The notes beneath the pieces are model-generated. The model was not told the DNA's origin, searched no databases, and was given only the letters and a program-made list of their open reading frames with translations. Made by a program: the position numbers and the translations under genes. This document shows, piece by piece, positions 9,927-61,262 of a DNA stretch of 64,000 nt. The DNA is from Sinohyriopsis cumingii (Eukaryota > Mollusca > Bivalvia > Unionida > Unionidae): the NCBI GenBank assembly GCA_028554795.2, contig CM068831.1, positions 29,536,159-29,600,158 on the forward strand. Direction: 5' to 3'. The first letter of the stretch is position 1; each line of letters opens with the position of its first letter.

Positions 9927-10436
9927 TCATGACCTAGTGTGGTCGTCGAGGCACTGTGCAGCTGAACATCTGACCAGTTCCCTCCACTTGTCTCGATCAT
10001 GTGCCAATGCCTGTGTCTCCGCAAAACATTTCCTGGTCCATTCTGTGATGTTGTCAGTCCACCTTTTTCTCTGTCTACCTCTCATTCTGCCACCCTGGAC
10101 GCTGCCCTGCAGGACTGTTGTGGATAGACTGTTGGCTTTAGTGACATGGCCATACCATTTGAGATTTCTTTTTTTGACGGTGGTGAGGAGGTCCTCATAT
10201 TGGCCTACTTCGTCCCTGATGGTGTTACGCACTTCTTCATTTGTGATGTTGTCCATGTAAGAGATGACAATGATGGTTCTGTAGCATCTCATTTCAAGTG
10301 ACTGGATTCTTTGTTGTAATTCTGCTGTCAGGGTCCATGCCTCACATGAGTACAAAAAGACTGAGATGACTAAAGCTCGGAATAGTCTGATTTTAGTTTT
10401 CAGACATATATTCTTGTCTCTCCACAGTGCTGGCAT
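9927..10436 (-). mobile_element. LINE 3' fragment: reverse-transcriptase C-terminal region
   Basis: An open minus-strand frame of 169 residues runs from 10,436 to 9,927. It starts MPALWRDKNICLKTKIRLF, contains SCEAWTLTAELQ and LKWYGHV, and ends in a WRELVRCSAAQ block. These blocks are typical of the region downstream of the palm domain in a common invertebrate and fish non-LTR retrotransposon family. The catalytic part is absent: the element is 5'-truncated exactly where a foldback sequence begins (10,433). The frame has no stop or frameshift, so the insertion may be young. The family differs from the LINE at 1.5-3.6 kb. The methionine is probably internal to the original protein. Confidence 0.8.
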
Positions 10437-10710
10437 GTAACATTAGTGTTGTTAAAATAAGATTACATTATAAAGAAACAGTCAAACTAGTATCGCTGAT
10501 ATTGAAAGGCAACATATACAGGAAACATACTTTAACAAATGTAAAGATGATTATAAAACGTGAAAAGTATTAGAATTTTTCATATACTTTGACAGTACGT
10601 TAAAGTATGTTTCCTGTATATGTTGCCTTTCAATATCAGCGATGCTAGTTTGACTGTTTTTTATAATGTAATCTTATTTTAACAACACTAATGTTACATG
10701 CTAGAACTGT
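10424..10710. mobile_element. Foldback/MITE-like inverted repeat
   Basis: A left arm of about 105 bp (from 10,433, GCATGTAACATTAGTG) is repeated in reverse complement up to 10,701, around a loop of about 60 nt (10,536-10,597). The arms differ by only a few bases. Weaker symmetry continues outward for about 10 bp (CACAGTGCTG against the complement of AGAACTGTG), on the left into the LINE fragment. No transposase is encoded. Candidate origins are a non-autonomous foldback transposon, or a snap-back product formed when the adjacent LINE inserted. Confidence 0.75.
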
Positions 10711-13427
10711 GAAGCATTCTTATAATTTAGTACCAACTTCCTTACGAGAGGCACATCAGCGTATGTATTGAAGATACAAGTAGCTCGGGTAAGTAATGCA
10801 TCCGTCAATTGTACGAAAGGTCATATTTAAGAACAAATGTATGTGAAAGCAAATTAGTTACCTAGATTATCCTATGGATGGGTGACTTGATGTCATATTA
10901 TCTTAAACTAGTTACGCATTAAAGATAATTTCGAAATCGTGTATGTTTTTCGTATATTGCTGGCAAACAATTGCCTCTTAAGTACTTCCATCCAGATAAA
11001 TCACGCCACTGAGAAGCTGGACAATGTTACAGCCGCTTTCTGTCAGGTCGAAAACATAGGATGTTTTCAACGGATTCTGCTTACATCGGTTGTCATTAAT
11101 GTTGTTTATGTGTCTACAGATAACGCCTTTTAATTATTGAGTATGGTACCATTGTCGTGATTACGTTCTAATAGCTGTCTCCTATAGTTCCAGGTGTTAT
11201 TCAGCGTCCACAGACAATTACGATACCTAGACTTGCTCAGTAAACTTTCACATCTCGTCAGTAATTATCCTTAAACACCGGAGTTAAACTTGTACCAGGA
11301 TGACACTGTTTCATGCTGGTCTTGCTCTACGATCTCTTAGTTACTGATCATAAACATTGCACAAATGGAAGTCGTAGAAGCGATAATGAGAAAATTAAAT
11401 GGATTTTGATTAGTATGCTATGATCTATGAATAGTTGATAATTACCTTAGGTAATGCATATGAATCGTCTCAGTTTGAGAAATTAAAAATGTAATCATAG
11501 AGAACTAAACATTTTACAAGGCTAACAAATTAAGTCATCAAACAAATTGCATGAGACATTTCTCTGAGGACTGAACTTATTTCCAAAATGCCATATGTCT
11601 GGCTAAACACAGAAGACGTTCCCCGCCCCCCCCCCCACAAGACACAATTACTTTGGAAACCATTTGGTGTCAACGTTCACAAAATAGATTTAATACACCA
11701 TGGGGCTAGTCTTTGAATATCTTAATCAATTATACGCCGAACCTAATGCTATGACCATTAATGCTCTCACGCTACGCAGTCATCATCTTCATAAAGCTCA
11801 AGGGAAATATTGAGAAACATATAAGGGATAATCAAGCAGAACAGAATTTATTTTCCTTGTCTTCTTTAAATTGCCATCATTCATAATTTGGAAGGAAAAT
11901 AAACTGTTGACTTTGATAACTAAAAATATACCCCAATGAGCAATATTTATGTTTGAAATATAAATAATGGAAATACCTAAGATTCGTGATGTATTTCATA
12001 TTTTAGAACCAACAAGTCTTAATGATACGTGTATTATAAAGTCAGGTATACTGCATGTAAATTAAGTAACAAACCCTGTAAATGCCTCTTTTTATACCTT
12101 ATGTTCGTTGAAAGGACGTTTCAAGGAATTGATTCCAAGTAAACAGAAACACAAAACTATCGTCAACGGTTGTCTGAAGGTAAATGGATGCCTCAGACGT
12201 AGACGTGTACATTACTGTAAGATACCATAAAACTATAGTATAAACATCGGTGCAAATACATTATGTAATGTACCATTACACAAAAAAAAAAACAAATGTA
12301 GCACCATATCTCATTTAGATGTAATGAAGTGTTGCAATGGTTCTCTATTTACAGAAGCTATCGGTAGAAGAAGGGGCCACAAATATTTTAAATAAATAAC
12401 TCCTATCGAATTATATCTGACATACTGATCTAAGACAGGAATGAAATATTTCTCAAATCCATATTAATACACATTTTCAGTTGACCTGTAGCGTAAGAGA
12501 ATGTGAAGAATTCCGATGGAAAACCTAGTCAAACTGTAATCAAAACTGTCCTGGATCTCACGCTACGTAAACTCTTTGTATACAGATTACAAACAGGGGC
12601 ACAAGTTAGCTATGTAAAGATTCTTTTGAAAACATTACGTAATGAAGATAGATAAGCAAACAATATATAATGTGTCGTTAGCAATCTCGTAATTACGAGT
12701 TATCTATCTTGTAACTGCGACTTAACATCGACCGGAAAGATAATAATTCACTTGGTCGAACGGTACACGTAAGTCATACTGCTGTAGATAAAAGCGTGTG
12801 ATCCCAAACCAGATGGTATTAATTTAATCCAGACTTGTGCATCCTTTCTTCTGATTTAGGATGAATGGTACGAGGATATATAGGATTTATTTTCATGTGG
12901 GATTTACAGCATGAAGCACCAACGAGGAGTAGGGTATTCAATGTCTTAGTGTTTTCTCTTCTAGATTCTGGGAGAGAGAATGAGTTTAAACCATATTGGC
13001 TGTGGAAGAAAAGAGGGTGGGAGACACGATGCCTCTTTGTCTATATCTCAACGAAGCCATCTATATGTCCATCGAACGAACTGTTTTACTATTTATCTGC
13101 CTCCATATCTGATAGCATAAATATACGTAATACAACTTTACAAAAACTGCATGGTTAATTATGATGCAATTAAACGCACAGATGAAACCATATATGGGTC
13201 ATATAATTAAAATAGAAATATCACAGTGCGATTACATTTTATTTTGACGAAATATATTCTTGTGTATTATTTGTCATGGCATACTATGTACAAACTGTTG
13301 TTAAACATGAATGATAATAATCTATTTTGAATGGTCTTGTCTACTGCATCAGTTTTAAACGTTAAAGTAGCAAGATGTAAATCTTTTAGAAAAAAATATC
13401 AACATAAATTCCTTAGCAGATAAGGTA

Positions 13428-35324: not shown

Positions 35325-35340
35325 GACAGTGCATATGAGT

Positions 35341-35690
35341 AGTAAATGGGGGCACCCTAGCGACAATGGGAATTAGCATGACAAGACCCCTTGGGCAACT
35401 CTAGCGACAATGGAAAATTAACATGGAGAAAAATCGTGGGACAATCTGGCGACAAGGGAAATTAACATGGAGAAAAATCGTGGGTCACTCTAGCGACAAG
35501 GGGAATTTAACATGGAACTATAGTGTGGGTCTGTCTAGCGACAAGGGGAAATTAACATGGGAATAGAGTTTGGGTCTGCCTAGGGACAAGGGGAATTGAA
35601 CATATGGAAATTGAACATGGTGGGTCTGTATAGCGTCAAGGGGAATTGAACATGGTGGGATTGTCTAGGGACAATGATGGTAGAGGGTCA
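35341..35690 (+). repeat. Tip tandem repeats (~46-bp units), left arm
   Basis: About seven or eight imperfect units, each with CTAGCGACAA.GGG, then AATT.AACATGG, then a variable middle. The array begins immediately at the arm end. Tandem repeats at the tips of long inverted repeats are a hallmark of foldback (FB) and Galileo-type elements. Confidence 0.85.
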
Positions 35691-35999
35691 AACACAACAG
35701 AGACAGAAACATACATACACTAGTACAAGCGTGAGATTTATATATAAAGCATTACCAAGACCTGAAATCTTGCTGGGGTGTTCAAAAATTTGCATAATTG
35801 TAATGATGCTATAAATAGCTATAATCAAGGAAATGCTCAACGACAAAATGGATGTGACTAAAAGTAACGCTAAAATGACGAAATTGTCCCAGAATTTAAA
35901 GGAAAATAAACATATCCCCGAAAATTAAGTTACAATGGTTTAGACTAAAATGGATAAAATTAGTAACTACTTACAATATCAACTTCTGTGACGATCGTG

Positions 36000-36240
36000 A
36001 ACAAATACCTATGTATCTATAATCAGCTGAAATTCCTATGAAATCCCACTATCTATTTATAGCTCCAACTTGTGGGTTTTTCCTTTGGAAAATCCCACTA
36101 TCTTTTTATAGCCTCAGCTTGAGTGACGTTCCTGTTTATGAATTCTAGTATATATGTATAGCTACAAAATGTGGAAATCCCCAAGTCGATATTTATAGTC
36201 TCAAAATTTCCAGCGTCAGTGACGTCACTGTACTGAACAC
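36000..36240 (+). repeat. ~60-bp repeat block with TATA-like units, left arm
   Basis: Three or four imperfect units carry ATCCCACTATCT.TTTATAGC followed by CA.CTTG. The mirror copy is at 46,380-46,620. The block ends in CAGTGACGTCACTG (left arm ~36,216-36,229; a slightly shifted mirror near 46,391), which contains the CRE core TGACGTCA. TATA-like words plus a CRE suggest a regulatory role, but no transcript starts can be seen. Confidence 0.6.
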
Positions 36241-36360
36241 TAGGGGATAAATGTCAACAGTGTTGCAAGTGGCTGACCTGAATACACGCTACTGCAGGTA
36301 GGTAGGTAGAGTGTATCTGATAGGGATAAAGTGAGTTTTTATAGGGACAAACAGAGACCA

Positions 36361-36659
36361 ATACACACACACATGCACGCACACACACACACACAACGTA
36401 CGCGCGCAGACATACGCACACACACACACACACACACACAGAGAGGGAAGAGGAAAAAACAAACCCAAAATATACTATCAATACAGAAGGGAGATAACAC
36501 AAACCCCAAATAAACTATCAACACAAACGTACGCGAACGCATACAAACCCCAAATATACTATTCACACAACGTCGCTAACGCATACAAACCCCAAATATG
36601 CTATCCACACTCGGGAGGAAGAAGAAAAAACAACCAAATATACGATCTACACAACGTAC

Positions 36660-36705
<46 letters not shown>

Positions 36706-37390
36706 GGAAGAGGAAAAAACAAACCCAAAATATACTATCAACACAGAAGGGAGATAATACAAACCCCAAATAAACTATCCACACAAACGTACGCGAACGC
36801 ATACAAACCCCAAATATGCTATCCACACTCGGGAGGAAGAAGAAAAAAACAACCAAATATACGATCTACACAACGTACGCGAACAAACACACACACACAC
36901 ACATACACACACACACAGAGGGAAGAGTCAAAAACAAACCCCAAATATACTATCAACACAGAAGGGAGATAATACAAACCCCAAATAAACTATCCACACA
37001 AACGTACGCGAACGCATACAAACCCCAAATATACTATTCACACAACGTCGCTAACGCATACAAACCCCAAATATGCTATCCACACTCGGGAGGAAGAAGA
37101 AAAAAACAACCAAATATACGATCTACACAACGTACGCGAACAAACACACACAGACACATACACACACAAAGAGGGAAGAGTCAAAAACAAACCCCAAATA
37201 TACTATCAACACAGAAGGGAGATAATACAAACCCCAAATAAACTATCAACACAAACGTACGCGAACGCATACAAACCCCAAATATACTATTCACACAACG
37301 TCGCTAACGCATACAAACCCCAAATATGCTATCCACACTCGGGAGGAAGAAGAAAAAACAACCAAATATACGATCTACACAACGTACGCG

Positions 37391-37435
<45 letters not shown>

Positions 37436-38755
37436 GGAAGAGGAAAAAACAAACCCCAAATATACTATCCACACAGAAGGGAGATAATACAAACCCCAAA
37501 TAAACTATCCACACAAACGTACGCGAACGCATACAAACCCCAAATATACTATCAACACAGAAGGGAGATAATACAAACCCCAAATAAACTATCCACACAA
37601 ACGTACGCGAAGGCATACAAACCCCAAATATGCTATCCACGCTCGGGAGGAAGAAGAAAAAAACAACCAAATATACGATCTACACAACGTACGCGAACAA
37701 ACACACACACACACACACACATACACACAGAGGGAAGAGTCAAAAACAAACCCCAAATATACTATCAACACAGAAGGGAGATAATACAAACCCCAAATAA
37801 ACTATCCACACAAACGTACGCGAACGCATACAAACCCCAAATATACTATTCACACAATGTCTCTAACGCATACAAACCCCAAATATGCTATCCACACTCG
37901 GGAGGAAGAAAAAAAAAAAAAACAGCCAAATATACGATCTACACAACGTGCGCGAACAAACACACACACACACACATACACACACACAGAGGGAAGAGGC
38001 AAAAACAAACCCCAAATATACTATCAACACAGAAGGGAGATAATACAAAACCCAAATAAACTATCCACACAAACGTACGCAAACACATACAAACCACAAA
38101 TATGCTATCAACACAGAAGGGAGATAATACAAACCCCAAATAAACTATCCACACAAACGTACGCGAACGCATACAAACCCCAAATATACTATCAACACAG
38201 AAGGGAGATAATACAAACCCCAAATAAACTATCCACACAAACGTACGCGAACGCATACAAACCCCAAATATGCTATCCACACTCGGGAGGAAGAAGAAAA
38301 AAACAACCAAATATACGATCTACACAACGTACGCGAACAAACACACACACACACATACACATACACACAGAGGGAAGAGTCAAAAACAAACCCCAAATAT
38401 ACTATCAACACAGAAGGGAGATAATACAAACCCCAAATAAACTATCCATACAAACGTACGCGAACGCATACAAAGCCCAAATATACGATTCACACAATGT
38501 CTCTAACGCATACAAACCCCAAATATGCTATCCACACTCGGGAGGAAGAAGAAAAAAAAACAGCCAAATATACGATCTACACAACGTGCGCGAACAAACA
38601 CACACACACACACATACACACACACAGAGGGAAGAGGCAAAAACAAACCCCAAATATACTATCAACACAGAAGGGAGATAATACAAACCCCAAATAAACT
38701 ATCCACACAAACGTACGCGAACGCATACAAACCCCAAATATACTATCAATACAGA
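36361..38755 (+). repeat. CA-rich higher-order satellite, left arm (~8 copies)
   Basis: Composite units of roughly 220-390 bp contain CAAACCCCAAATATACTATC words, an ACAGAAGGGAGATAATAC block, ACGTACGCGAACGCATAC, a CTCGGGAGGAAGAAG block, CAACCAAATATACGATC and an inner CA microsatellite of variable length. The GGGAGGAAG block occurs eight times (36,611 to 38,540). Long open frames here, up to 274 codons on the plus strand and 123 on the minus, are low-complexity products of the repeat (NPKYTI, HTHTHT, CVCVCV) and are not genes. Confidence 0.93.
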
Positions 38756-39195
38756 GTGAAGAAGAAAAAGTTTTTTGAAAGCACCTAAGCCCTCACCTGC
38801 AATGACCAACTCTGCCAAACACCTACACCCCACCCCCACTCCCAACACTACAAAACCCATTTAACCCGTTATTTTATGGCATCAGTGTGTGATTTAGGAA
38901 ACATCAAGACACAAAATGATGGATGAATAGACTGACTATTGTTTACCGACTTGCATGCCTAAAGAGCGTGCGTGAAGGAAAACATCCTTCCGTTTCAATT
39001 CTAACTAAAACATGATCCAGAGGGATAGAGAGAGGTGAAAGAGCACAATTTCATAAAGTGTGAGTAAAAACAAAACACGCCATCCTTATTATACAATGTC
39101 AAGACCAAGAGACACTTACGTTTTCTTTCTGGTCTATTCTCTTTTAGAAGTTAGTATGAAATTTCACATCAGGGCCAACGCATCGGCTCACATTG

Positions 39196-39592
39196 TCAAT
39201 TTTTCCATTTCCATGTCTTTACTGGCACAAGTTCTCTATCATCTTCAATTTCTTCTTCTTCTGAATCCCTCATCTCTGTTTCGTCTTGTTTTTGTTTCTT
39301 CTCTTTTCTCGTAGGGCACTCTGAATTCCAGTGTCCTTTCTCCTGACAACGATATTAGGTATCTTGACTTTTGTCTCTCTTTCTTAGACGAAGCAGGTAT
39401 TCTGGAGACAAATACCCATTTACCTTTGCAGATATAGCAAACTTCATTAGCACTTACACACTTTCGTATGACTCTCATCAAATCAACGATCAAAAGAGTA
39501 AGTTTTGTTGCCACTTTCGCATGTGAATTATGCTTTCGTATGACTTTTAGCAAATATTTGACCAGCAGGTCGATCTGTGCTGACTCTTCCAT
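39196..39592 (-). pseudogene. Gag-like zinc-knuckle gene, left-arm copy
   Basis: Mirror copy of 44,472-44,868 with the same ATG, the same +1 shift and the same missing first Cys. It differs by a few substitutions, for example Asp for Glu near the end of the first frame. The lesions were therefore present before the arms duplicated, or have been homogenised by gene conversion. The TATA box is at about 39,646-39,652. Confidence 0.5.
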
Positions 39593-40774
39593 CTTCTTGA
39601 TCGTTATGAGAGCGGAATGAATACTCTGACGCTAAGACACTCTCCTTATATACAGGGACCTGCTGCGTATGAAACCTAGTCAAATGTAATTTTGCAATAA
39701 GATGAAACGATTTCATTGAGGAAGTAAAAAGCAATGATGTACCGTATCGCCTCACACAAAACCTGAAGTGTTAGTTCAAATCCGTGTCAGCGATTTCGAA
39801 GACGACATAACTGAGCTTTAATCAATGCTCTCCAATTATGCCACAAAACCACGAGTCCTGATTCACGCCAAAAGAAATTTCGTTCGGTCCATAAAAAATA
39901 GTATCATATCTGAGAAACGCAAAAAGGAACTTCCAGAAAACTGAGAAAGACGGCTTACACCTAAAACGTAAATGTATGAGTTCAAGTAGTGCGTAAAACT
40001 TAGTCAAATTAAATTTTTATAGTCAAGTCGAAACGATCTCTTTTCGAACAAGAAAGCAGACACCAAGCGACAATAGCGATCCGTGTCACACAACACTTTT
40101 CAAAATGTATATTATCAGAGGTTTGTTCTAGCGATCTGCACGGTTAAATTAAATGTTGATGTATTTTGCAATAAGACGGACACAATTTCCATGGGATCGC
40201 CCATGGTACGAATGTTCGTGCATTAGTTTAATTTTTAAAAATATTTTTTTTATATAAATCGCCTATAGGATAGACCCAGTAAAGCATGGCCATTCTCGTC
40301 ACTGTCTGAATAGCTACTCAAGTCAATTCGAAGCGAACGCCGTAAGAAAATAAGTATAGCCAATGAAATGGCTTACAACGGGTGATACATTGTTTTGTTC
40401 TAGGACTGTGTGGCATAATAATCCCTATGTTCTTGCGTTGTTACCATTACAGTGCAGACAGACTGAAATGTGAACTTACAAGCCCTCTTTGTGTGTGTTG
40501 TACCATTTCCTCTTAACACATCAAAATACTGAGCGTCACAGTATTGGTTCGCGTTTTCAAACTGACCATTTTTTTTATATCTCACTTAAACATTTCGACA
40601 TAAACACTCACACTCACATCGGTAGAGTCAAAACAGACGTGTTACAGTATTGAGGGGCATGTTATCTTTTCGTTTTCAAACTAATAAATTTGGGGCTTGT
40701 ATGAAGTAAAGAACCGAAAGTACAGTGAAACTCAAGGATGATGACCCAATCTGTCTGTCTGTTGATGCGTGTAT

Positions 40775-41047
40775 TTACTTAAGAAGAAATATGACCTCTA
40801 AAACACAAAGAGATACGGCAAGCATGATTAGATCAAACACAACGATGTTTTCCTTCACGCCCGTGTAATTTAGAGTTTCAATCGTCTTTGAAGACAAACT
40901 TGGTCTCCTTTTGTAGGGCTTGAAATAATAAAAGAAACTGAAAAATCTTAAGCACTTTGCTATAGATAATTTCATCAACAGACTAAACAACATAAATACC
41001 GTTACAACAATAGAAAGCCTTAAATCTTCTATCAAAAAGAAATGCAT
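40775..41047 (-). CDS. Small hydrophobic protein ORF, left-arm copy (unknown)
   Basis: Exact mirror of the 43,017-43,289 frame with an identical 90-residue product. It reads away from the spacer, in the same outward sense as the gag-like gene. See the right-arm copy for the description; whether it is expressed is unknown. Confidence 0.25.
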   Translation of the reverse strand: MHFFLIEDLRLSIVVTVFMLFSLLMKLSIAKCLRFFSFFYYFKPYKRRPSLSSKTIETLNYTGVKENIVVFDLIMLAVSLCVLEVIFLLK

Positions 41048-41075
41048 GAAAAAAATTAAAGATTAACGACAACTA

Positions 41076-41172
41076 ACCAATGAAACCGAATTTAACAAAG
41101 GCAATGACATGTGAAGAAATGCCTCTCACTTTGGAAAGGTAGGCGAATGTACTCTGTCATGCACCATCAACT
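41076..41172. repeat. 97-bp segment duplicated at the arm/spacer junction (copy 1)
   Basis: This segment of the left arm is repeated identically and in the same orientation at 41,414-41,510. It has its expected single mirror in the right arm (~42,891-42,988). The extra copy therefore belongs to the spacer junction only. Confidence 0.92.
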
Positions 41173-41413
41173 TGAAAAAAATTATAAACAGAGAGAAACC
41201 TGAATTCAAAATTCAGTTGTTTCTTTTTCTTCAAAATTGTTTCGTTTCTTTTTTCTTTTTTTTGGAACAAATCTAAGCACTAATATAGAGTGGAAAAGGG
41301 AAAATGCACATACAAGCTTTGATATTTCTGAAAAAATGAGGGGATATTCCTAACGTTCATAACCAGCTATATATGCTTGGACTTGTCTGTGACTTATCCA
41401 CAAAACAAGATGT

Positions 41414-41510
41414 ACCAATGAAACCGAATTTAACAAAGGCAATGACATGTGAAGAAATGCCTCTCACTTTGGAAAGGTAGGCGAATGTACTCTGTCATGC
41501 ACCATCAACT
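41414..41510. repeat. 97-bp segment, copy 2, at the left junction
   Basis: Direct repeat of 41,076-41,172, beginning exactly where left-arm symmetry stops. It is followed at once by a long-stem hairpin. Such local re-copying at an inverted-repeat junction is expected from template switching during replication, or it could mark an insertion boundary. Confidence 0.92.
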
Positions 41511-41513
41511 ATA

Positions 41514-41573
41514 GAATTTTTTTGGGGGAACTTGAAGCGATCGCCATAGCTTCAAGTTCCCCAAAAAAATTTC
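41514..41573. repeat. Long-stem hairpin in the spacer
   Basis: A stem of about 21 bp (AATTTTTTTGGGGGAACTTG on the left, its complement on the right with one G bulge) surrounds the loop GATCGCCATA. It is close to a perfect palindrome and could be the whole of a tiny foldback element or joined terminal inverted repeats. Confidence 0.85.
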
Positions 41574-41822
41574 AGGGCTACCCCATACTCTCGAAAAGAA
41601 ATAACATTCCATTGCCTATGATATGTTAGTCAGTTAGAAGAAAAAATACAGAAGTGAGTCTATTAGCACATGATTTCTTTATCTTGGTTAGAAAGTGTGA
41701 CTCTAAGTTGTTCGTTTCCGTCGCTTATCAAAATTTTAAAAATAGTAATGTTCTGTAAAAAGTGAGTGAGTGTTTCTTTTAGGTCTGTGCGTTTTTTTTT
41801 TTTTTTTGTTGTTTTTTTTTGT

Positions 41823-41935
41823 TGGTGATAATATGGATAATGTAAGTTCGGGTACAACGAAATTTAAAGAATTAGGCCCAGAACTCGGTGTGGAGGGAAG
41901 AAATATACGCAACTGCAGCGGGAGCAAGAAATGCA
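41823..41935 (+). pseudogene. Gag-like N-terminal remnant in the spacer
   Basis: A frame beginning near ATGGATAATG encodes KFKELGPELGVEGRNIRN, similar in pattern to the start of gag in Gypsy-type LTR elements of invertebrates (ELGxxLGxxGxxLR). A shift to LQREQEMQ follows, then noise. TGGTGATAA just upstream could be a primer-binding-site-like leader. The element body is absent. The assignment is by pattern only. Confidence 0.35.
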
Positions 41936-42039
41936 GACCTAGCCAGTTAGCACTGAGGCATTCTGCGTTTGACAATGCCTTTGATGTCGTACACGTCGTC
42001 TTTTTTGGTGACACGACTTGATTTGAAATAAGTACGGGC

Positions 42040-42310
42040 TAGCGTTTTGGTGAGTACTTAACATCCATGGCTGTCTTGCTGAGCACCTTTTTCCTCCTTT
42101 ACCACGCTCGGACAGAAAAATGAGTGTGTGGTGAGACAATTCCCACTCATGTTTAAAGCCTTTCAGTCAGGTTGTTAAGGACTAGTTAGTCCTACACGTG
42201 ATTGGCTAAATTTAAAAGTAGTCTGTGAGTACATAAAAGCCTGGGGAGATGAGGCTCTCTTTCCTTCCCCAGGAGTAATTAAAAATCACGCGGTGCGTTA
42301 TTAAACCAGT
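42040..42310 (+). mobile_element. LTR-like module with three hairpins (copy A, spacer)
   Basis: The module shares order and local sequence with 62,585-62,800. Hairpin 1 (42,120-42,150) has stem ATGAGTG/CACTCAT and loop end ATTCC; hairpin 2 (42,178-42,193) is AGGACTAGTTAGTCCT; a TATA-like CATAAAAGC follows; hairpin 3 (42,241-42,272) has stem CTGGGGA/TCCCCAG around GATGAGGCTCTCTTTCC. AATTAAA-like poly(A) words follow. The TATA-to-pyrimidine spacing fits an LTR U3/R boundary, so a solo or partial LTR is the leading reading. A structured noncoding RNA is the alternative. Confidence 0.45.
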
Positions 42311-42648
42311 GATACATGCTCCATTAGAGCGAAAATCACTTTAATTCAAGTAAGCAAGCAAGCAAGTTCGGGTACCGTCTCTAGCACTCTTGATGACACC
42401 AACTGTCTGGGTTATTTTCTTTCTTGCAAGCCCCTATGTTCCACTTCTGTTTGTGATAATAACTTGTGATACTTCACATTTCCTAAAGTGGAAATCTTTA
42501 CAAGCCGTACAAAATACAAAACTTATATGACTTTGGCTTTTGACACTTGCACAGACTCTTCACTTTATAAGTGTCACGAGAAAATTGTATATCCCATTTT
42601 TACCATTTTCAAAAACACGCACACACTTGCAGCTTGACCAGAAATATG
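42311..42648. other. Rest of the spacer, no gene recognised
   Basis: Holds a GCAA tetranucleotide patch (AAGTAAGCAAGCAAGCAAG near 42,349-42,367) followed by AAGTTCGGGTAC, a 12-mer also found at 41,842 inside the gag-like remnant. Otherwise unassigned. Confidence 0.45.
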
Positions 42649-43016
42649 TACATCTTGTTTTGTGGATAAGTCACAGACAAGTCCAAGCATATATAGGTGG
42701 TTATGAACGTTAGGAATATCTCCTCATTTTTTCAGAAATATCAAAGCTTGTATGTGCATTTTCCCTTTTCCACTCTATATTAGTGCTTAGATTTGTTCCA
42801 AAAAAAAAGAAAAAAGAAACGAAACAATTTTGAAGAAAAAGAAACAACTGAATTTTGAATTCAGGTTTCTCTCTGTTTATAATTTTTTTCAAGTTGATGG
42901 TGCATGACAGAGTACATTCGCCTACCTTTCCAAAGTGAGAGGCATTTCTTCACATGTCATTGCCTTTGTTAAATTCGGTTTCATTGGTTAGTTATCGTTA
43001 ATCTTTAATTTTTTTC

Positions 43017-43289
43017 ATGCATTTCTTTTTGATAGAAGATTTAAGGCTTTCTATTGTTGTAACGGTATTTATGTTGTTTAGTCTGTTGATGAAATTATCT
43101 ATAGCAAAGTGCTTAAGATTTTTCAGTTTCTTTTATTATTTCAAGCCCTACAAAAGGAGACCAAGTTTGTCTTCAAAGACGATTGAAACTCTAAATTACA
43201 CGGGCGTGAAGGAAAACATCGTTGTGTTTGATCTAATCATGCTTGCCGTATCTCTTTGTGTTTTAGAGGTCATATTTCTTCTTAAGTAA
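43017..43289 (+). CDS. Small hydrophobic protein ORF, right-arm copy (unknown)
   Basis: A 90-codon frame starting MHFFLIEDLRLSIVVTVFML. It has a long hydrophobic N-terminal half (about residues 9-40), a basic middle (KPYKRRPSLSSK, ~43-54) and a second hydrophobic segment at the C-terminus (~68-90), compatible with two membrane spans. It is identical in both arms with no stop, although the nearby gag-like gene is broken. No family is recognised. It may be a chance frame preserved only because the arms are young, since noncoding DNA around it is equally conserved. Confidence 0.25.
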   Translation: MHFFLIEDLRLSIVVTVFMLFSLLMKLSIAKCLRFFSFFYYFKPYKRRPSLSSKTIETLNYTGVKENIVVFDLIMLAVSLCVLEVIFLLK

Positions 43290-43969
43290 ATACACGCATC
43301 AACAGACAGACAGATTGGGTCATCATCCTTGAGTTTCACTGTACTTTCGGTTCTTTACTTCATACAAGCCCCAAATTTATTAGTTTGAAAACGAAAAGAT
43401 AACATGCCCCTCAATACTGTAACACGTCTGTTTTGACTCTACCGATGTGAGTGTGAGTGTTTATGTCGAAATGTTTAAGTGAGATATAAAAAAAATGGTC
43501 AGTTTGAAAACGCGAACCAATACTGTGACGCTCAGTATTTTGATGTGTTAAGAGGAAATGGTACAACACACACAAAGAGGGCTTGTAAGTTCACATTTCA
43601 GTCTGTCTGCACTGTAATGGTAACAACGCAAGAACATAGGGATTATTATGCCACACAGTCCTAGAACAAAACAATGTATCACCCGTTGTAAGCCATTTCA
43701 TTGGCTATATTTAATTTCTTACCGCGTTCGCTTCGAATTGACTTGAGTAGCTATTCAGACAGTGACGAGAATGGCCAGGCTTTACTGGGTCTATCCTATA
43801 GGCGATTTATATAAAAAAAATATTTTTAAAAATTAAACTAATGCACGAACATTCGTACCATGGGCGATCCCATGGAAATTGTGTCCGTCTTATTGCAAAA
43901 TACATCAACATTTAATTTAACCGTGCAGATCGCTAGAACAAACCTCTGATAATATACATTTTGAAAAGT

Positions 43970-44402
43970 GTTGTGTGACACGGATCGCCATTGTCTCTTG
44001 GTGTCTGCTTTCTTGTTCGAAAAGAGATCGTTTCGTCTTGACTATAAAACTTTAATTTGACTAAGTTTTACGCACTACTTGAACTCATACATTTACGTTT
44101 TAGGTGTAAGCCGTCTTTCTCAGTTTTCTGGAAGTTCCTTTTTGCGTTTCTCAGATATGATACTATTTTTTATGGACCGAACGAAATTTCTTTTGGCGTG
44201 AATCAGGACTCGTGGTTTTGTGGCATAATTGGAGAGCATTGATTAAAGCTCAGTTATGTCGTCTTCGAAATCGCTGACACGGATTTGAACTAACACTTCA
44301 GGTTTTGTGTGAGGCGATACGGTACATCATTGCTTTTTACTTCCTCAATGAAATCGTTTCATCTTATTGCAAAATTACATTTGACTAGGTTTCATACGCA
44401 GC
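43970..44402 (+). repeat. Duplicated promoter-proximal unit, right arm
   Basis: Two units about 300 bp apart share ACACGGAT, then ATCGTTTC.TCTT, then AATTTGACTA.GTTT.ACGCA (first ~43,978-44,075, second ~44,279-44,400). A weaker third copy of the middle part (GTCCGTCTTATTGCAAAA) lies at ~43,885. The mirror copies are in the left arm at about 39,662-40,090. The last unit leads directly into the TATA box of the gag-like gene, as in LTRs with duplicated upstream elements. Confidence 0.5.
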
Positions 44403-44411
44403 AGGTCCCTG

Positions 44412-44418
44412 TATATAA
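44412..44418 (+). promoter_or_regulatory. TATA box of the gag-like gene, right arm
   Basis: TATATAA, followed about 30 bp later by a TATTCATTCC pyrimidine-rich start-like sequence and then the ATG at 44,472. The same arrangement is mirrored at 39,646-39,652 in the left arm. It looks like an RNA polymerase II core promoter inside the repeat. Confidence 0.45.
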
Positions 44419-44471
44419 GGAGAGTGTCTTAGCGTCAGAGTATTCATTCCGCTCTCATAACGATCAAGAAG

Positions 44472-44868
44472 ATGGAAGAGTCAGCACAGATCGACCTGCT
44501 GGTCAAATATTTGCTAAAAGTCATACGAAAGCATAATTCACATGCGAAAGTGGCAACAAAACTTACTCTTTTGATCGTTGATTTGATGAGAGTCATACGA
44601 AAGTGTGTAAGTGCTAATGAAGTTTGCTATATCTGCAAAGGTAAATGGGTATTTGTCTCCAGAATACCTGCTTCGTCTAAGAAAGAGAGACAAAAGTCAA
44701 GATACCTAATATCGTTGTCAGGAGAAAGGACACTGGAATTCAGAGTGCCCTACGAGAAAAGAGAAGAAACAAAAACAAGACGAAACAGAGAAGAGGGATT
44801 CAGAAGAAGAAGAAATTGAAGATGATAAAGAACTTGTGCCAGTAAAGACATGGAAATGGAAAAATTGA
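44472..44868 (+). pseudogene. Gag-like zinc-knuckle gene, right-arm copy
   Basis: The frame from ATG 44,472 encodes MEESAQIDLLVKYLLKVIRK, then CYICKGKW, a knuckle-like start that lacks the Gly-His pair. From 44,716 a +1 frame encodes CQEKGHWNSECP, the second half of a CCHC zinc knuckle, followed by an acidic tail (EEEEIEDDKELVP) to a TGA at 44,868. The first Cys of that knuckle falls on a TAA stop. The pattern fits a retroelement gag-like nucleic-acid-binding protein disabled by a frameshift. A TATA box (TATATAA, 44,412-44,418) lies 54 bp upstream of the ATG. No polymerase or integrase is found in the arm. Confidence 0.5.
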
Positions 44869-45308
44869 CAATGTGAGCCGATGCGTTGGCCCTGATGTGA
44901 AATTTCATACTACCTTCTAAAAGAGAATAGACCAGAAAGAAAACGTAAGTGTCTCTTGGTCTTGACATTGTATAATAAGGATGGCGTGTTTTGTTTTTAC
45001 TCACACTTTATGAAATTGTGCTCTTTCACCTCTCTCTATCCCTCTGGATCATGTTTTAGTTAGAATTGAAATGGAAGGATGTTTTCCTTCACGCACGCTC
45101 TTTAGGCATGCAAGTCGGTAAACAATAGTCAGTCTATTCATCCATCATTTTGTGTCTTGATGTTTCCTAAATCACACACTGATGCCATAAAATAACGGGT
45201 TAAATGGGTTTTGTAGTGTTGGGAGTGGGGGTGGCGTGTAGGTGTTTGGCAGAGTTGGTCATTGCAGGTGAGGGCTTAGGTGCTTTCAAAAAACTTTTTC
45301 TTCTTCAC

Positions 45309-46162
45309 TCTGTATTGATAGCATATTTGGGGTTTGTATGCGTTCGCGTACGTTTGTGTGGATAGTTTATTTGGGGTTTGTATTATCTCCCTTCTGTGTT
45401 GATAGTATATTTGGGGTTTGTTTTTGCCTCTTCCCTCTGTGTGTGTGTATGTGTGTGTGTGTGTTTGTTCGCGTACGTTGTGTAGATCGTATATTTGGTT
45501 GTTTTTTTTTCTTCTTCCTCCCGAGTGTGGATAGCATATTTGGGGTTTGTATGCGTTAGCGACGTTGTGTGAATAGTATATTTGGGGTTTGTATGCGTTC
45601 GCATACGTTTGTGTGGATAGTTTATTTGGGGTTTGTATTATCTCCCTTCTGTGTTGATAGTATATTTGGGGTTTGTTTTTGACTCTTCCCTCTGTGTGTG
45701 TGTGTGTATGTATGTGTGTGTGTTTGTTCGCGTACGTTGTGTAGATCGTATATTTGGTTGTTTTTTTCTTCTTCCTCCCGAGTGTGGATAGCATATTTGG
45801 GGTTTGTATGCGTTCGCGTACGTTTGTGTGGATAGTTTATTTGGGGTTTGTATTATCTCCCTTCTGTGTTGATAGTATATTTGGGGTTTGTTTTTTCCTC
45901 TTCCCTCTGTGTGTGAGTGTGTGTGTGTGTGGGTGTGTGTGTGTTCGCGTACGTTGTGTAGATCGTATATTTGGTTGTTTTTTCTTCTTCCTCCCGAGTG
46001 TGGATAGCATATTTGGGGTTTGTATGCGTTAGCGACGTTGTGTGAATAGTATATTTGGGGTTTGTATGCGTTCGCGTACGTTTGTGTTGATAGTTTATTT
46101 GGGGTTTGTGTTATCTCCCTTCTGTATTGATAGTATATTTTGGGTTTGTTTTTTCCTCTTCC

Positions 46163-46204
<42 letters not shown>

Positions 46205-46259
46205 ATGTCTGCGCGCGTACGTTGTGTGTGTGTATGTGCGTGTGTGTGTGTTTGTGTAT
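45309..46259 (-). repeat. CA-rich higher-order satellite, right arm (~3 copies)
   Basis: Same composite unit as the left-arm array in the opposite orientation, but the CTTCCTCCCGAG block occurs only three times (~45,512, 45,770, 45,989). The array is 951 bp against 2,395 bp on the left. This is the only large difference between the arms. Confidence 0.93.
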
Positions 46260-46929
46260 TGGTCTCTGTTTGTCCCTATAAAAACTCACTTTATCCCTAT
46301 CAGATACACTCTACCTACCTACCTGCAGTAGCGTGTATTCAGGTCAGCCACTTGCAACACTGTTGACATTTATCCCCTAGTGTTCAGTACAGTGACGTCA
46401 CTGACACTGGAAATTTTGAGACTATAAATATCGACTTGGGGATTTCCACATTTTGTAGCTATACATATATACTAGAATTCATAAACAGGAACGTCACTCA
46501 AGCTGAGGCTATAAAAAGATAGTGGGATTTTCCAAAGGAAAAACCCTCAAGTTGGAGCTATAAATAGATAGTGGGATTTCATAGGAATTTCAGCTGATTA
46601 TAGATACATAGGTATTTATTCACGATCGTCACAGAAGTTGATATTGTAAGTAGTTACTAATTTTATCCATTTTAGTCTAAACCATTGTAACTTAATTTTC
46701 GGGGATATGTTTATTTTCCTTTAAATTCTGGGACAATTTCGTCATTTTAGCGTTACTTTTAGTCACATCCATTTGGTCGTTGAGCATTTCCTTGATTATA
46801 GCTATTTATAGCATCATTACAATTATGCAAATTTTTGAACACCCCAGCAAGATTTCAGGTCTTGGTAATGCTTTATATATAAATCTCACGCTTGTACTAG
46901 TGTATGTATGTTTCTGTCTCTGTTGTGTT

Positions 46930-47279
46930 TGACCCTCTACCATCATTGTCCCTAGACAATCCCACCATGTTCAATTCCCCTTGACGCTATACAGACCCAC
47001 CATGTTCAATTTCCATATGTTCAATTCCCCTTGTCCCTAGGCAGACCCAAACTCTATTCCCATGTTAATTTCCCCTTGTCGCTAGACAGACCCACACTAT
47101 AGTTCCATGTTAAATTCCCCTTGTCGCTAGAGTGACCCACGATTTTTCTCCATGTTAATTTCCCTTGTCGCCAGATTGTCCCACGATTTTTCTCCATGTT
47201 AATTTTCCATTGTCGCTAGAGTTGCCCAAGGGGTCTTCTCATGCTAATGCCCATTATCGCTAGGGTGCCCCCATTTACT
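46930..47279 (-). repeat. Tip tandem repeats (~46-bp units), right arm
   Basis: Mirror copy of the left tip array (35,341-35,690), with the same number and order of units and only scattered substitutions. Together with the left copy it marks both outer boundaries of the giant inverted repeat. Confidence 0.85.
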
Positions 47280-47287
47280 ACTCACAT

Positions 47288-50200
47288 GTTTCTCCACAGA
47301 GGATTTTTCTTTGCAATATTTTAAAAACTCCTTTCCAACTTTCTCTGGAATCTGAATAGTTAGATCGAGTTATGGATCTTTAAGTCTGTATGGCGTAATG
47401 TAAGGTATTAACAAAGTTAAAGAGTTACATTGAGAAATGAATAAAACCAAACAATACAAAGCTCTTGAAAGTTATTTATTGAAAAATATATGTAGATGTA
47501 CATTTTGAGCGTAATTTAAGAATTACTTCTGAACTGAAATAGAGAGTTAGTAGCCTTGATTAGAACATTTTAAAGTTATTATTTATTTAAAGATCAATAT
47601 GAAACCAGTTTGTGCTCCCGGCACTTGCAATATTTGCTTTTGGACTAATGTTGTTGTTTTAAGTCCATCCTACAGATTTTTCGGAAAGACGATTTTTCAG
47701 ATATCATGAATCCAGAACGGGTCATATATTTTTGAAGGTTTGTAAATTTATTTGCATTCTTTCGTTTCCTTTCTGTTATGATACCACGATTTGATGCAAA
47801 GCAGTGGAGAGGCCTACTAATGTGTTATCATATAAAAGTGTAATCATGGCAAATAATCAGTTCCAAATGTCGGCTCTTAACATTATACTTTTATGAAAAT
47901 ATATAATTGACGCTCGCTAGGTATACCAACCCACCCACATGCGTGTGAGAGTTGAAGATCTACATGCCACATGATTTTGTCATCAGTTACAATCGGGCTG
48001 ATTTGACTAGGAAGTACGTCTTATTGAAGTTACCACGCGTTTTATGTGTGTCAAAAGGATTACGAAATAGCACAACACTTACATTTCTTCAGTTCTTATT
48101 TGTTGTACTTTTAGCATTCACATCTTCATGTACTGACGTACACTACAAAATCTTAAATTGAGTTTAACGTATCGGTATTTATGACGCTACTTTTGTTCTA
48201 AATCAGCCAGGCATATTCGTCAGATATACATGGCGTCAACGCCATTCATTCACTCTGGAGTGTTTGATGCATTGTGTTTGAATGCAATATGAATTTATTG
48301 GACACAATACAATTACATTTTTATAAATCCATTGTTCAGTTTTGTGAGATGAAACTTATAAAATATGGGAATGCGCCATACAAAAAAAAAAAACAACAAC
48401 CCACAACCCCACCCACAACCCAAAATAATCAACAAAATAAAACACGCAATGCAGTTTTTAGATGGTTATACTCTTGAGCAAAGATGATTTTAGTTGCCAG
48501 CTTCTGATTACCGTCAACGTGGGCTGAACTTGCATTGCAATTACAGTAAACTTTGGTTTAACCTGCGTTATAAAATGCGATGCTACTTGGGGAAAAGCTC
48601 GATTAAGATGGTTCATTCTTCACCGACTGTCAATTAAGAGCAATCGGAGCAAACAAAGCATTCATTATGTATATTCTGCAATTACCAATCATATCCAAAG
48701 CGGTTGTACATGTTTCATTTGTTAACAGAAAGTATAGGCTATTAAGTTACATTCGCTCTAAATTGCATACTTTGTAAAATTTCTCGTTAATCTCGTATTT
48801 AGTTGTGCTCTGTCGAAAACGATTTTGTTGCTAAGACGACACTACATTATAATATTGACGTATTTCTGACATCAATGAAGCCAGTGTGACTTTAAAGGCT
48901 TCCTACGATGACAAAGTAGTCAATAACATATGGAGACCTACCATCACCGTCAATAAATGTCAGATTTGTTGATCATTTATACCTAACAATAGGAAATAAT
49001 GTAAAGAACAAAGATAAGCAGGCCATCTTTAATATCCATAATGGTTAGAACAATATCATCCTTAGCCATAAATCAGACCTATCTGCCTTAGAGTTCGACA
49101 TCTGGGGATAAAAAGCGAACAAACACAAAGAAATAAAAGCACAAACCAAAGAAATGAGATTGGAATAATAAACATCTAATTCATGGCAGAAAGATAATAT
49201 CTATCCAAAGAAATAAAAAGTTCGAAATTGAAGAAAAATATGAAAATAATTGCCATCTTGTATAAATGTGACCAAGTATGTAGGTGTACGGTGTATAAAC
49301 TAAACTATTTGGGATTAAAGCTGGAAGCACGTGAACGCGGTATCCCCAGACGTACTACGGAAAAGTCACCCTTTGCATATATTAATATCAAGACATTAGC
49401 GTAACGTTCTAAACTTCTATTAAGCGGTTTGTTTCTTGCAACTAATTGTATTTTATTGTATTCATTTACTTTTTTTTATTTATTTACGTATGTATTTATT
49501 TATTTGTATTTGTGGATAGAACATTGATTTCCTGTTATTCTGATCTCCAAGCTAGAGACAGGTTTTGAATCGTAATATATTGTATCAGTACTGAGTAAAA
49601 GTATCAGGTTTTCATTGCTTTATGATAAAGAATATTTCTGAAATATGCGTGTGGAGTTGACACTGCTTGATGACAAAGCTTGGATTTGTCGGAAACAAAG
49701 CGTAAATTATATTCATCGCAAGATAACAGTTACGATTGTTTTTTCTCATCTAAGTATCGCATTTTTTTAAATCCTGGAATTGTACATGGATCAAAATAAC
49801 ACGATATGATAAATGCAAGCATAATCAATATTATTGAATTAAATTAACATTTATGATTTTAGTAGATATAACGAATTTGTTGAGTTGTTACGTGAGTCGT
49901 ATTATTCTGATGCAAACTGGAGATTGTCATTATCATTGTCATCATCGCCTTTTACATGCAAACCTTAACCGTATAATGCATACTCTAAGTAAAAGAAATT
50001 ATTACTGTATTGTTTCCTAGTGCTCTTCCATTTCTCTTTCGTCCATATGACCCAAAGAATATTAATGTTTTCTGTGTTTTGACTTCAGCTTGTATGTGTA
50101 ATGTTAGATTTCGATGTGTAATTACGTGTACGTTGTTTTAGACAGATCCTTTTATAGACTGCCATAACAAATAATTTAGAACAGACTTAAGCACTCATCA

Positions 50201-57364: not shown

Positions 57365-57635
57365 CTTATGTGTGTGTGTGCTTGTGTGATTTGGATATTT
57401 AACATAGCTCTAAGAATTTGTTTCAGTCATATCGCTACGGTGACTGCATTTTGGCAGTTTATAATGATGTCTAGCACTGGTGCATCATGCCGCAGACATG
57501 TAGCAGCCACATTATACTGGTACCAGCCCGACCAGTCCTAACACTAACGTCTTAATACCGAGCGTCTAGCGAGGCAGCTGTTAGTAACATTTTTATAAGG
57601 CTTTGGTATGACTGGACAGGGTTTAAACCGCGACC
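57365..57635 (-). mobile_element. SINE-A, body (split copy)
   Basis: Minus-strand copy matching 60,970-61,262: from the right, GTCATACCAAAGCC, ACAGCTGCCTCGCTAG, GTTAGTGTTAGGACTGGTC, TGTCTGCGGCATGATGC, then CGTAGCGATATGACTGAAAC near the 3' end. It is separated from its tRNA-like head (57,885-57,937) by an inserted SINE-B. It ends near a TG-rich patch at 57,365. Confidence 0.85.
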
Positions 57636-60939: not shown

Positions 60940-61262
60940 ATTGGCTGGAAGCTTATCATTAAGACTCACAACGCTTAATTCCAATGCGAGAGGTCGTGGG
61001 TTCGATCTCTGGCCGAGTCATACCAACGACTTACAAAAATGGTACTAACAGCTACCTCGCTAGGCACTCAGCATTAAGAGGTTAGTGTTAGGACTGGTTG
61101 GCCTGTTGTCAGGATCGTGTGTCTGGGTGGGACATTATGATACATGTCTGCGGCATGATGCCCCAGTGTTAGACATCACAATAAACTGCCACAATGCATA
61201 CACCGTAGCGATATGACTGAAACATTGTTAAAGCTACTTAAAAAATCAAAGTCACACACTTA
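60940..61262 (+). mobile_element. SINE-A, near full-length copy
   Basis: An eroded tRNA-like head (~60,940-61,030) carries the box-B-like GGTTCGATCTC at ~60,999 and is followed by GAGTCATACCAACGAC. The body includes ACTAACAGCTACCTCGCTAG, GTTAGTGTTAGGACTGGTTG, TGTCTGCGGCATGATGC and CACAATAAACTGCCACAATG, and the 3' domain is CGTAGCGATATGACTGAAAC then TTGTTAAAGC. The 3' domain is of a type I recall as widespread in mollusc genomes. Confidence 0.85.

What the first reader, a model, noticed from the sequence alone, without database searches (positions are those of the whole stretch)
35333..47287. A ~12 kb giant inverted repeat with nearly identical arms around a unique spacer
The two arms (35,333-41,414 and 42,649-47,287) mirror each other with constant coordinate sums (84,064 for the inner part, 82,620 for the outer part). 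Only one 1-bp indel and one satellite-length change separate them over more than 4.6 kb. That is far more conserved than anything else in this decayed neighbourhood, so the structure is young or maintained by gene conversion. The arms carry a promoter, a gag-like gene and a hydrophobic ORF, all pointing outward. No recognised family explains this set.
Basis: partly seen in the sequence, partly recalled or inferred. Interest (0 to 1): 0.9.

Follow-up and report, generated by a model that had tools for sequence, protein, structure and literature searches.

The report
Palindromic satellite of a Polinton transposon
The giant mirror-image DNA in this window is one of roughly a thousand or more copies of a gene-poor parasite of a virus-like jumping element (a Polinton), and its mirror structure looks like the symmetric defective genomes that some linear DNA viruses make when a copied strand folds back on itself.

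Summary
The inverted repeat is real: 23 substitutions in 3,679 bp, one 1-bp indel and unequal satellite arrays. It is a mobile element: 35338-47282 between AGTAGT...ACTACT ends and a 6-bp target duplication (window 5 of 6 bases; 4 of 7 palindromes tested 6 of 6). An arm tag occurs 1,391 + 1,373 times in the 2.9-Gb genome, control 0; of 100 listed tags, 70 form convergent pairs, none diverge.

The outer 266 bp is 97-98.5% identical to the end of a full-length 17-kb Polinton/Maverick. The arm interior is colinear with that Polinton's polymerase side. No intact Polinton gene was seen in it. Copies with an intact centre are near-perfect palindromes folded at a short hairpin; the window copy lost ~1.1 kb there. 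Arms of one copy are on average closer to each other than to other copies. Three end types occur on palindromes and on ~17-kb pairs, matched at both ends in 7 of 7 copies.

Best reading: a non-autonomous "double-end" Polinton derivative, mobilised in trans, its arms remade by fold-back protein-primed replication, like symmetric defective adenovirus genomes (recalled). Membership is strong; mobilisation and fold-back are inferred. Searches listed no palindromic Polinton.

The parts
35332..35337 (.). left target-site duplication CATATG
   Evidence: right copy is CACATG, 5 of 6; over 7 palindromes tested 4 are 6 of 6 and 3 are 5 of 6
47283..47288 (.). right target-site duplication CACATG
35338..35603 (+). 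left terminal repeat, type I (AGTAGTAAATGGGGGCACC...), built of ~45-bp tandem units; 98.1-98.5% identical to the ends of the 17-kb Polinton on C9
47017..47282 (-). right terminal repeat, type I; 97.0-97.4% identical to the same Polinton's ends
35660..36330 (+). arm block A; apart from repeat units at its outer edge no match to the two Polintons read
36361..38759 (+). 44-bp satellite array, left arm (2,399 bp); distantly like an array near the non-polymerase end of the C9 Polinton
45305..46259 (-). 44-bp satellite array, right arm (955 bp)
39085..39987 (-). stretch colinear with the polymerase-side end of a Polinton: zinc-knuckle gene and start of the DNA polymerase B frame
   Evidence: 39251-39987 to L029:1985-2732, 58% DNA identity over 796 columns, E 1e-27; 39085-39305 to L029:1700-1924, 60%, E 2e-4;
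39245..39592 (-). 115-aa frame, broken remnant of the Polinton zinc-knuckle gene, left arm
44472..44819 (+). same remnant, right arm
   Evidence: start read from the first ATG of the frame
40775..41047 (-).
41414..41510 (+). 97-bp exact copy of 41076-41172, filler at the deletion that removed the left inner arm in this copy
   Evidence: family D7, 100%
41517..41569 (+). central hairpin (loop 41539-41548), at the dyad axis of copies with an intact centre
41570..42647 (+). inner part of the right arm; mirrored on the left in copies with an intact centre
41961..42015 (-). remnant of a Polinton integrase C-terminal region
   Evidence: 88% DNA identity to L010:4552-4609 and 86% to L030:2102-2159
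35338..41413 (+). left arm
42648..47282 (-). right arm

Best explanation
The element is a non-autonomous, palindromic derivative of a Polinton/Maverick. Each half carries a Polinton terminal repeat, a satellite, a degenerate zinc-knuckle gene and the start of the polymerase gene, and the two halves are joined tail to tail at a short hairpin. No intact Polinton gene was seen in it. The abundant Polintons of the same genome recognise its ends, copy it and integrate it with a 6-bp target duplication (shown: ends and duplication; inferred: mobilisation in trans). The palindrome most likely arose, and is renewed, when a single strand of the linear DNA folded back at the central hairpin and was copied. 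That is the way symmetric defective genomes arise in protein-primed linear viruses such as adenovirus (inferred; adenovirus parallel recalled). Each cycle then makes the two arms, and the two terminal repeats, alike. After integration the centre of the palindrome is unstable, and many copies, including the window's, have lost part of it.
For: Ends AGTAGT...ACTACT with a 6-bp duplication: 4 of 7 palindromes 6/6, 3 of 7 5/6. PMC8097293 (passages seen) gives (AGT)2//(ACT)2 ends and 6-bp duplications for vertebrate Mavericks. The terminal 266 bp is 97-98.5% identical to a 17,046-bp element with DNA_pol_B_2, rve integrase + chromo and A32-type ATPase. The arm is colinear with that element's polymerase side (E 1e-27), and an integrase remnant lies further in, in the expected order. 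End types track the large elements: the type I palindrome (window) is 98.5% to the C9 Polinton end (type I) and 78-79% to a type II 16.7-kb element; the type II palindrome (C1) is 92-93% to the type II element and 79-80% to C9. Of listed zero-mismatch end pairs, 22 of 32 (type I), 33 of 43 (type II) and 30 of 44 (type IV) are 16-18.5 kb apart, while pairs under 15 kb include palindromes: 4 type II pairs of 8.5-14.2 kb each hold two convergent arm tags, and the C4 palindrome (14.3 kb) is type IV at both ends. In 7 of 7 palindromes with both ends read, the two ends are of one type. Mean arm difference is lower within copies than between copies in 6 of 6 blocks (0.12-0.49% vs 0.41-1.26%). Of 100 listed arm tags, 70 lie in 35 convergent pairs and no neighbours within 30 kb diverge. 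In 9 of 9 further centres of the canonical size class the dyad matches 189-234 of 240 positions, at or in the hairpin motif. Helpers: a polymerase-side tag occurs 12,162 times, and 109 of 109 scored integrase matches are at 99-100% identity (45,383 first-look candidates, 109 scored).
Against: No replication intermediate was seen. The arm interior is only ~58% identical to today's Polintons, so the actual parent was not found. The central hairpin was not found in the C9 pieces (one weak half-site only) nor inside the C3 Polinton (up to 1 mismatch). Block A has no Polinton counterpart, and the satellite resembles an array near the opposite Polinton end, so the arm is not a simple copy of one end. 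Arm likeness could also come from gene conversion in the chromosome. Single arms of different copies can be identical: the smallest between-copy difference is 0 in 4 of 6 blocks. One palindrome (C2b) has ends differing at 19 of 295 sites, and the two ends of the type II 16.7-kb element are only 88% identical. The window arms differ unevenly (4, 5, 0, 8 and 0 differences in five blocks). Satellite lengths differ between the arms of several copies.
Confidence: 0.72

Rival explanations
1. Polinton-derived palindrome, but born once by a chromosomal inverted duplication (breakage and fusion at the hairpin) and then spread as a passenger; the arms stay alike through gene conversion between the arms of each inserted copy, not through fold-back replication.
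For: Arm likeness alone does not tell conversion from replication. The window arms show a patchy pattern, 8 differences in one 501-bp block and none in the next.
Against: Arm-arm divergence ranges from 0 to 0.60% between copies, which looks like different ages rather than steady conversion. End type is matched at both ends in 7 of 7 copies. Centres differ between copies while the arms mirror. None of these excludes conversion.
Confidence: 0.22
2. Foldback-type element of another superfamily (for example Galileo/P-like or Mutator-like) that has captured Polinton ends.
For: Long internally repetitive inverted arms are typical of foldback elements (PMC3573991, start of abstract seen in the listing, describes this for Galileo).
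Against: The ends and the 6-bp duplication are those of Polintons in the same genome. Outside the satellite no frame is longer than 128 aa, and parts of the arm are Polinton-derived.
Confidence: 0.03
3. Assembly or sequencing fold artefact.
For: Palindromes are prone to such errors; one copy holds a 2,500-base gap (L024).
Against: Distinct flanks with matching 6-bp duplications, sequence differences between copies, more than 1,300 tags per strand, unequal satellites and private substitutions in the two window arms.
Confidence: 0.02

Closest known systems
Polinton/Maverick (the 17-kb element on C9 and the 20.5-kb copy on C3 of the same genome)
   Same: Terminal repeats, AGTAGT ends, 6-bp target duplication, zinc-knuckle and polymerase-start remnants in the same order
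   Different: Palindromic, no intact polymerase, integrase, ATPase, protease or capsid gene seen; interior strongly diverged
Symmetric defective (left-end duplicated) adenovirus genomes and other fold-back defective genomes of protein-primed linear DNAs (recalled, not read here)
   Same: Two copies of one genome end in inverted orientation, short axis, dependence on a helper (the last inferred here)
   Different: Here integrated in a host genome in roughly 1,000-1,400 copies and inherited; no particle or free form shown
Foldback elements such as Galileo (PMC3573991, start of abstract seen in a search listing)
   Same: Very long, internally repetitive inverted arms
   Different: Polinton ends, Polinton duplication length, partly Polinton-derived arms
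MITEs and other non-autonomous DNA transposons (general knowledge)
   Same: Ends shared with a larger gene-bearing element, no own enzymes, many copies
   Different: 9-14 kb, near-perfect palindrome when the centre is intact, arms homogenised within each copy

Membership tests
Polinton/Maverick (as non-autonomous member) | 6-bp target-site duplication | tested here: met
   palindromes 6/6 in 4 of 7, 5/6 in 3 of 7 (the window is one of these). The other 3 of the 10 copies studied (C2a, C82, C16) gave no end with the seed and were not tested
Polinton/Maverick (as non-autonomous member) | Terminal inverted repeats with the (AGT)2//(ACT)2 end motif | tested here: met
   motif from PMC8097293 (passages)
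Polinton/Maverick (as non-autonomous member) | Terminal repeats shared with a gene-bearing Polinton of the same genome | tested here: met
   97-98.5% over 266 bp (type I, C9 element read in full); 92-93% over 223 bp (type II, only the ends of the large element read)
Polinton/Maverick (autonomous) | Protein-primed DNA polymerase B, rve integrase, A32/FtsK ATPase, protease, capsid genes | tested here: not met
   the palindrome has only a broken zinc-knuckle frame, a polymerase-start stretch and an integrase remnant, so it is not an autonomous Polinton. Pfam was run on the zinc-knuckle frame alone
Polinton/Maverick (the larger elements on C3 and C9) | polymerase B, integrase, ATPase | tested here: met
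   protease match weak (E 0.0056, below cut-off), presumed capsid frames without a Pfam match; the polymerase is spread over more than one frame in both
Symmetric defective (fold-back) genome of a protein-primed replicon | two copies of one terminus in inverted orientation around a short axis | tested here: met
   family definition recalled
Symmetric defective (fold-back) genome of a protein-primed replicon | free linear or hairpin replication form, helper-dependent | not testable with these tools
   needs extrachromosomal DNA
Foldback/Galileo (P superfamily) | P-type transposase | tested here: not met
   outside the satellite no frame over 128 aa in the window element; not excluded for unread longer copies

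The most novel reading that the evidence does not exclude
An inherited satellite of a polintovirus: a palindromic defective genome that replicates as fold-back linear DNA with the helper's polymerase, takes over the helper's terminal repeats by recombination so as to follow whichever helper type is active, and may be packaged in helper capsids and dampen the helper's spread, the animal counterpart of a defective interfering genome fixed in the germ line.
Probability: 0.3. Interest if true: 0.9.

Novelty: new variant of a known kind. Interest (0 to 1): 0.7.

Why it matters
How Polintons replicate, and whether they act as viruses, is mostly inferred from their genes. Roughly 1,000-1,400 symmetric derivatives with homogenised arms and swapped ends would be a genomic footprint of fold-back, protein-primed, strand-displacing replication in a eukaryote germ line. 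They would also show that Polintons have their own parasites. Many fresh insertions that can be dated by arm divergence make both ideas directly testable.

Tried and rejected
Assembly fold: rejected (different flanks with target duplications, more than 1,300 tags per strand). Foldback of another superfamily: disfavoured. Gag gene of a retroelement: rejected; the frame is a remnant of the Polinton zinc-knuckle gene (tblastn E 1e-6; Pfam gave only a sub-threshold clathrin match). Selection on that remnant: 25 rows were collected, 22 of normal length, with 0 premature stops, 0 synonymous and 5 amino-acid-changing variants, so no sign of conservation. Rows L004 and L005 count the C2a arms a second time, and 3 rows of odd length were left out of the codon count. 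Palindromes made of today's Polinton: among the 100 listed polymerase-side tags (of 12,162, all on the first 27.4 Mb of C1) no convergent pair under 15 kb was seen by eye. The central hairpin in the parent: not found in the C9 pieces nor inside the C3 Polinton. Host identity: the mollusc haemocyanin family gave no match, but its control was silent too, so the species stays unknown. Rfam: no match in the window at gathering score. Literature: the listings (the top 5-20 titles and abstract starts of each) showed no paper on palindromic Polintons; subscription journals and Repbase are not covered. One script check went astray: one search compared 98 letters of the filler and returned False; the 97-bp match itself is.
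Full report
1. Observation. The inverted repeat is present as described. The arms share the two coordinate sums 84,064 and 82,620. Outside the satellite they differ by 23 substitutions in 3,679 aligned bases and one 1-bp indel. The satellite is 2,399 bp in the left arm and 955 bp in the right. The next longest repeat pairs elsewhere in the window are a 305-column self-inverted repeat and a 245-column pair.

2. Mobile element. A 1.5-kb arm probe found the window's two arms and 38 further matches, all at 99% identity; only 40 of 1,963 first-look candidates were scored. A 41-bp arm tag with up to 2 mismatches occurs 1,391 times forward and 1,373 times reverse, and the reversed control not at all. 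Only the first 100 places, all without mismatch, were listed. Of these, 70 form 35 convergent pairs and no neighbours within 30 kb diverge; 7 sit in one head-to-tail array on C3; the remaining 23 have no listed partner. From this I infer roughly 1,000-1,400 palindromes. Eleven of the 35 pairs have an inner distance of 5,999-6,109 bp, here called canonical, 20 are shorter and 4 longer. The window's own distance is 5,064. Measured palindrome lengths are 9.3-14.3 kb (six copies), the spread coming from satellite and centre.

3. Anatomy of copies with an intact centre. Nine other copies were read in pieces. C2 40.05M, C1 168.7M, C4 2.0M and C16 32.6M mirror the inner segment too, so the window's 'unique spacer' is the inner part of an arm that its left side has lost. 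C82 1.1M also has inner sequence on both sides, in part. C101, C2b and C6 have lost inner sequence on one side, and C3 is interrupted by a Polinton. The loss in the window is marked by a 97-bp exact copy of 41076-41172. The other nine of the eleven canonical pairs were read at their centres only. They match as dyads at 189-234 of 240 positions. The axis falls in the loop of the hairpin GGGGAACTTGAAGC/GCTTCAAGTTCCCC, up to 2 mismatches per half (5 of 9), between two such hairpins (2 of 9), or in a half-lost hairpin (2 of 9).

4. Ends. The element starts with AGTAGT and ends with ACTACT. Seven palindromes had both ends found by the seed: the 6-bp duplications match fully in 4 of 7 and in 5 of 6 bases in 3 of 7, the window among the latter. 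Three copies (C2a, C82, C16) gave no end with that seed and were not tested. A vertebrate Maverick study (PMC8097293; passages and its section 8 seen) gives 6-bp duplications and (AGT)2//(ACT)2 ends.

5. Polintons of this genome. One palindrome (C3) is split by a 20,501-bp element with duplication TATATC. Its frames match rve integrase (E 2.4e-14) with chromodomain, DNA polymerase B (2.6e-37), A32-type ATPase (2.5e-7), BIR (1.2e-20) and CCHC; the adenovirus-type protease match is weak (0.0056, under the cut-off) and the presumed capsid frames have no Pfam match. A 17,046-bp element on C9 matches polymerase B, ATPase and integrase. In both, the polymerase is spread over more than one frame, so neither is shown to be a working helper. 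The C9 terminal repeats are 381 bp at 99%, and their first 266 bp are 97-98.5% identical to the window element's ends. Its duplication reads TCTCTA on both sides if the element begins at AGTAGT (read); the script started one base earlier and scored 5 of 6. A 44-bp polymerase-side tag is found 5,967 + 6,195 times. All 109 scored integrase matches, of 45,383 first-look candidates, are at 99-100%, and 3 of the 109 hold one stop. For comparison, 287 copies in axolotl is the largest figure in the section read of PMC8097293, and Mavericks make up 1.69% or 1.93% (two table columns) in a clam genome paper (one passage of PMC8905726).

6. What the arms are. Going inward from the end, the arm shows terminal repeat, block A, satellite, then a stretch colinear with the Polinton's polymerase side (39085-39987 with L029:1700-2732), and, in the inner part, an integrase remnant (41961-42015). 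The zinc-knuckle frame is broken relative to the Polinton's gene and shows no sign of conservation. I therefore call the palindrome non-autonomous. Block A has no match to the two Polintons read beyond repeat units at its edge, and the satellite resembles an array near the other end of the C9 Polinton, so the arm is not a plain copy of one end.

7. Arms change together. In six blocks, with 4-9 within-copy pairs each from ten copies, arms of one copy differ on average by 0.12-0.49% and arms of different copies by 0.41-1.26%; the smallest between-copy difference is nevertheless 0 in four blocks. Summed over the blocks available, single copies differ by 0-0.60% (68 of 25,653 sites). Satellite lengths differ between the arms in several copies.

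8. Ends follow the larger elements. Palindromes with the same arms carry different terminal-repeat types. The type I palindrome (window) is 98.5% identical to the C9 Polinton end and 78-79% to a type II 16.7-kb element; the type II palindrome (C1) is 92-93% identical to the type II element and 79-80% to C9. Only C9 was read in full; the type II element was read at its two ends, which are 88% identical to each other, and the type IV large elements were not read, though one (C1:26399731) has the polymerase-side tag 2.4 kb inside its end, as in C9. Genome-wide there are 2,320 type I ends (up to 3 mismatches), 530 type II (up to 2) and 432 type IV (up to 2), with no control match. Of listed pairs, 22 of 32, 33 of 43 and 30 of 44 are 16-18.5 kb apart; 9, 10 and 4 are under 15 kb. 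Four type II pairs under 15 kb hold two convergent arm tags. Both ends are of one type in 7 of 7 palindromes (five type I, one type II, one type IV), though in C2b they differ at 19 of 295 sites.

9. Mechanism. Shown: Polinton ends, Polinton duplication, partly Polinton-derived arms, palindrome on a hairpin, joint change of the arms, many copies, abundant Polintons. Inferred: Polinton polymerase and integrase act in trans, and the palindrome arose and is renewed by fold-back copying of a displaced strand. The latter is recalled from symmetric defective adenovirus genomes; no paper on these was read. That Polintons encode a protein-primed polymerase and an integrase is stated in PMC6431247 (passages). 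The chief rival is a single inverted duplication with gene conversion afterwards. The wide spread of arm-arm divergence and the matched ends favour copying at birth, but do not prove it.

10. Novelty. Paper searches (for Polintons; 32, 52, 73 for fold-back defective genomes; listings only, with passages of PMC2871265 and PMC9004415) showed nothing on palindromic Polintons. The library holds only openly licensed papers. I rate it a new variant of a known kind.

Noticed in passing
whole genome G000: An unusually large Polinton expansion: 12,162 matches to a 44-bp polymerase-side tag with up to 3 mismatches, control 0. If most were ~17 kb this would be roughly 200 Mb of 2.9 Gb; lengths were not checked.
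   Followed up: partly
L011 122-1370 (C3 Polinton): The 20.5-kb Polinton carries a BIR-domain (inhibitor of apoptosis) frame, and a second neighbouring frame looks similar by eye. No convincing match lies in the 17-kb C9 copy (best E 0.054), so it looks like cargo of some copies.
   Followed up: partly
G000:C3:139326394-139343453: Seven arm tags in head-to-tail order every ~2,837 bp: part of the arm seems to have turned into a tandem array.
   Followed up: no
G000:C1:7705173-7709948 and 8133791-8139301: Two Polinton polymerase-side tags facing away from each other about 4.7 and 5.5 kb apart, as if two elements abut head to head at their ends.
   Followed up: no
L033-L041: The hairpin at the palindrome axis differs between copies (single, double, half lost, longer loop) while the arms mirror closely.
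   Followed up: partly
window 10420-10714: A separate small self-inverted repeat (305 columns, 87% self-complementary), perhaps a MITE; it overlaps the end of a 169-aa open frame at 9927-10436.
   Followed up: no
window 57383-57613 and 61016-61258: A pair of inverted 79% identical repeats, perhaps another dispersed element.
   Followed up: no
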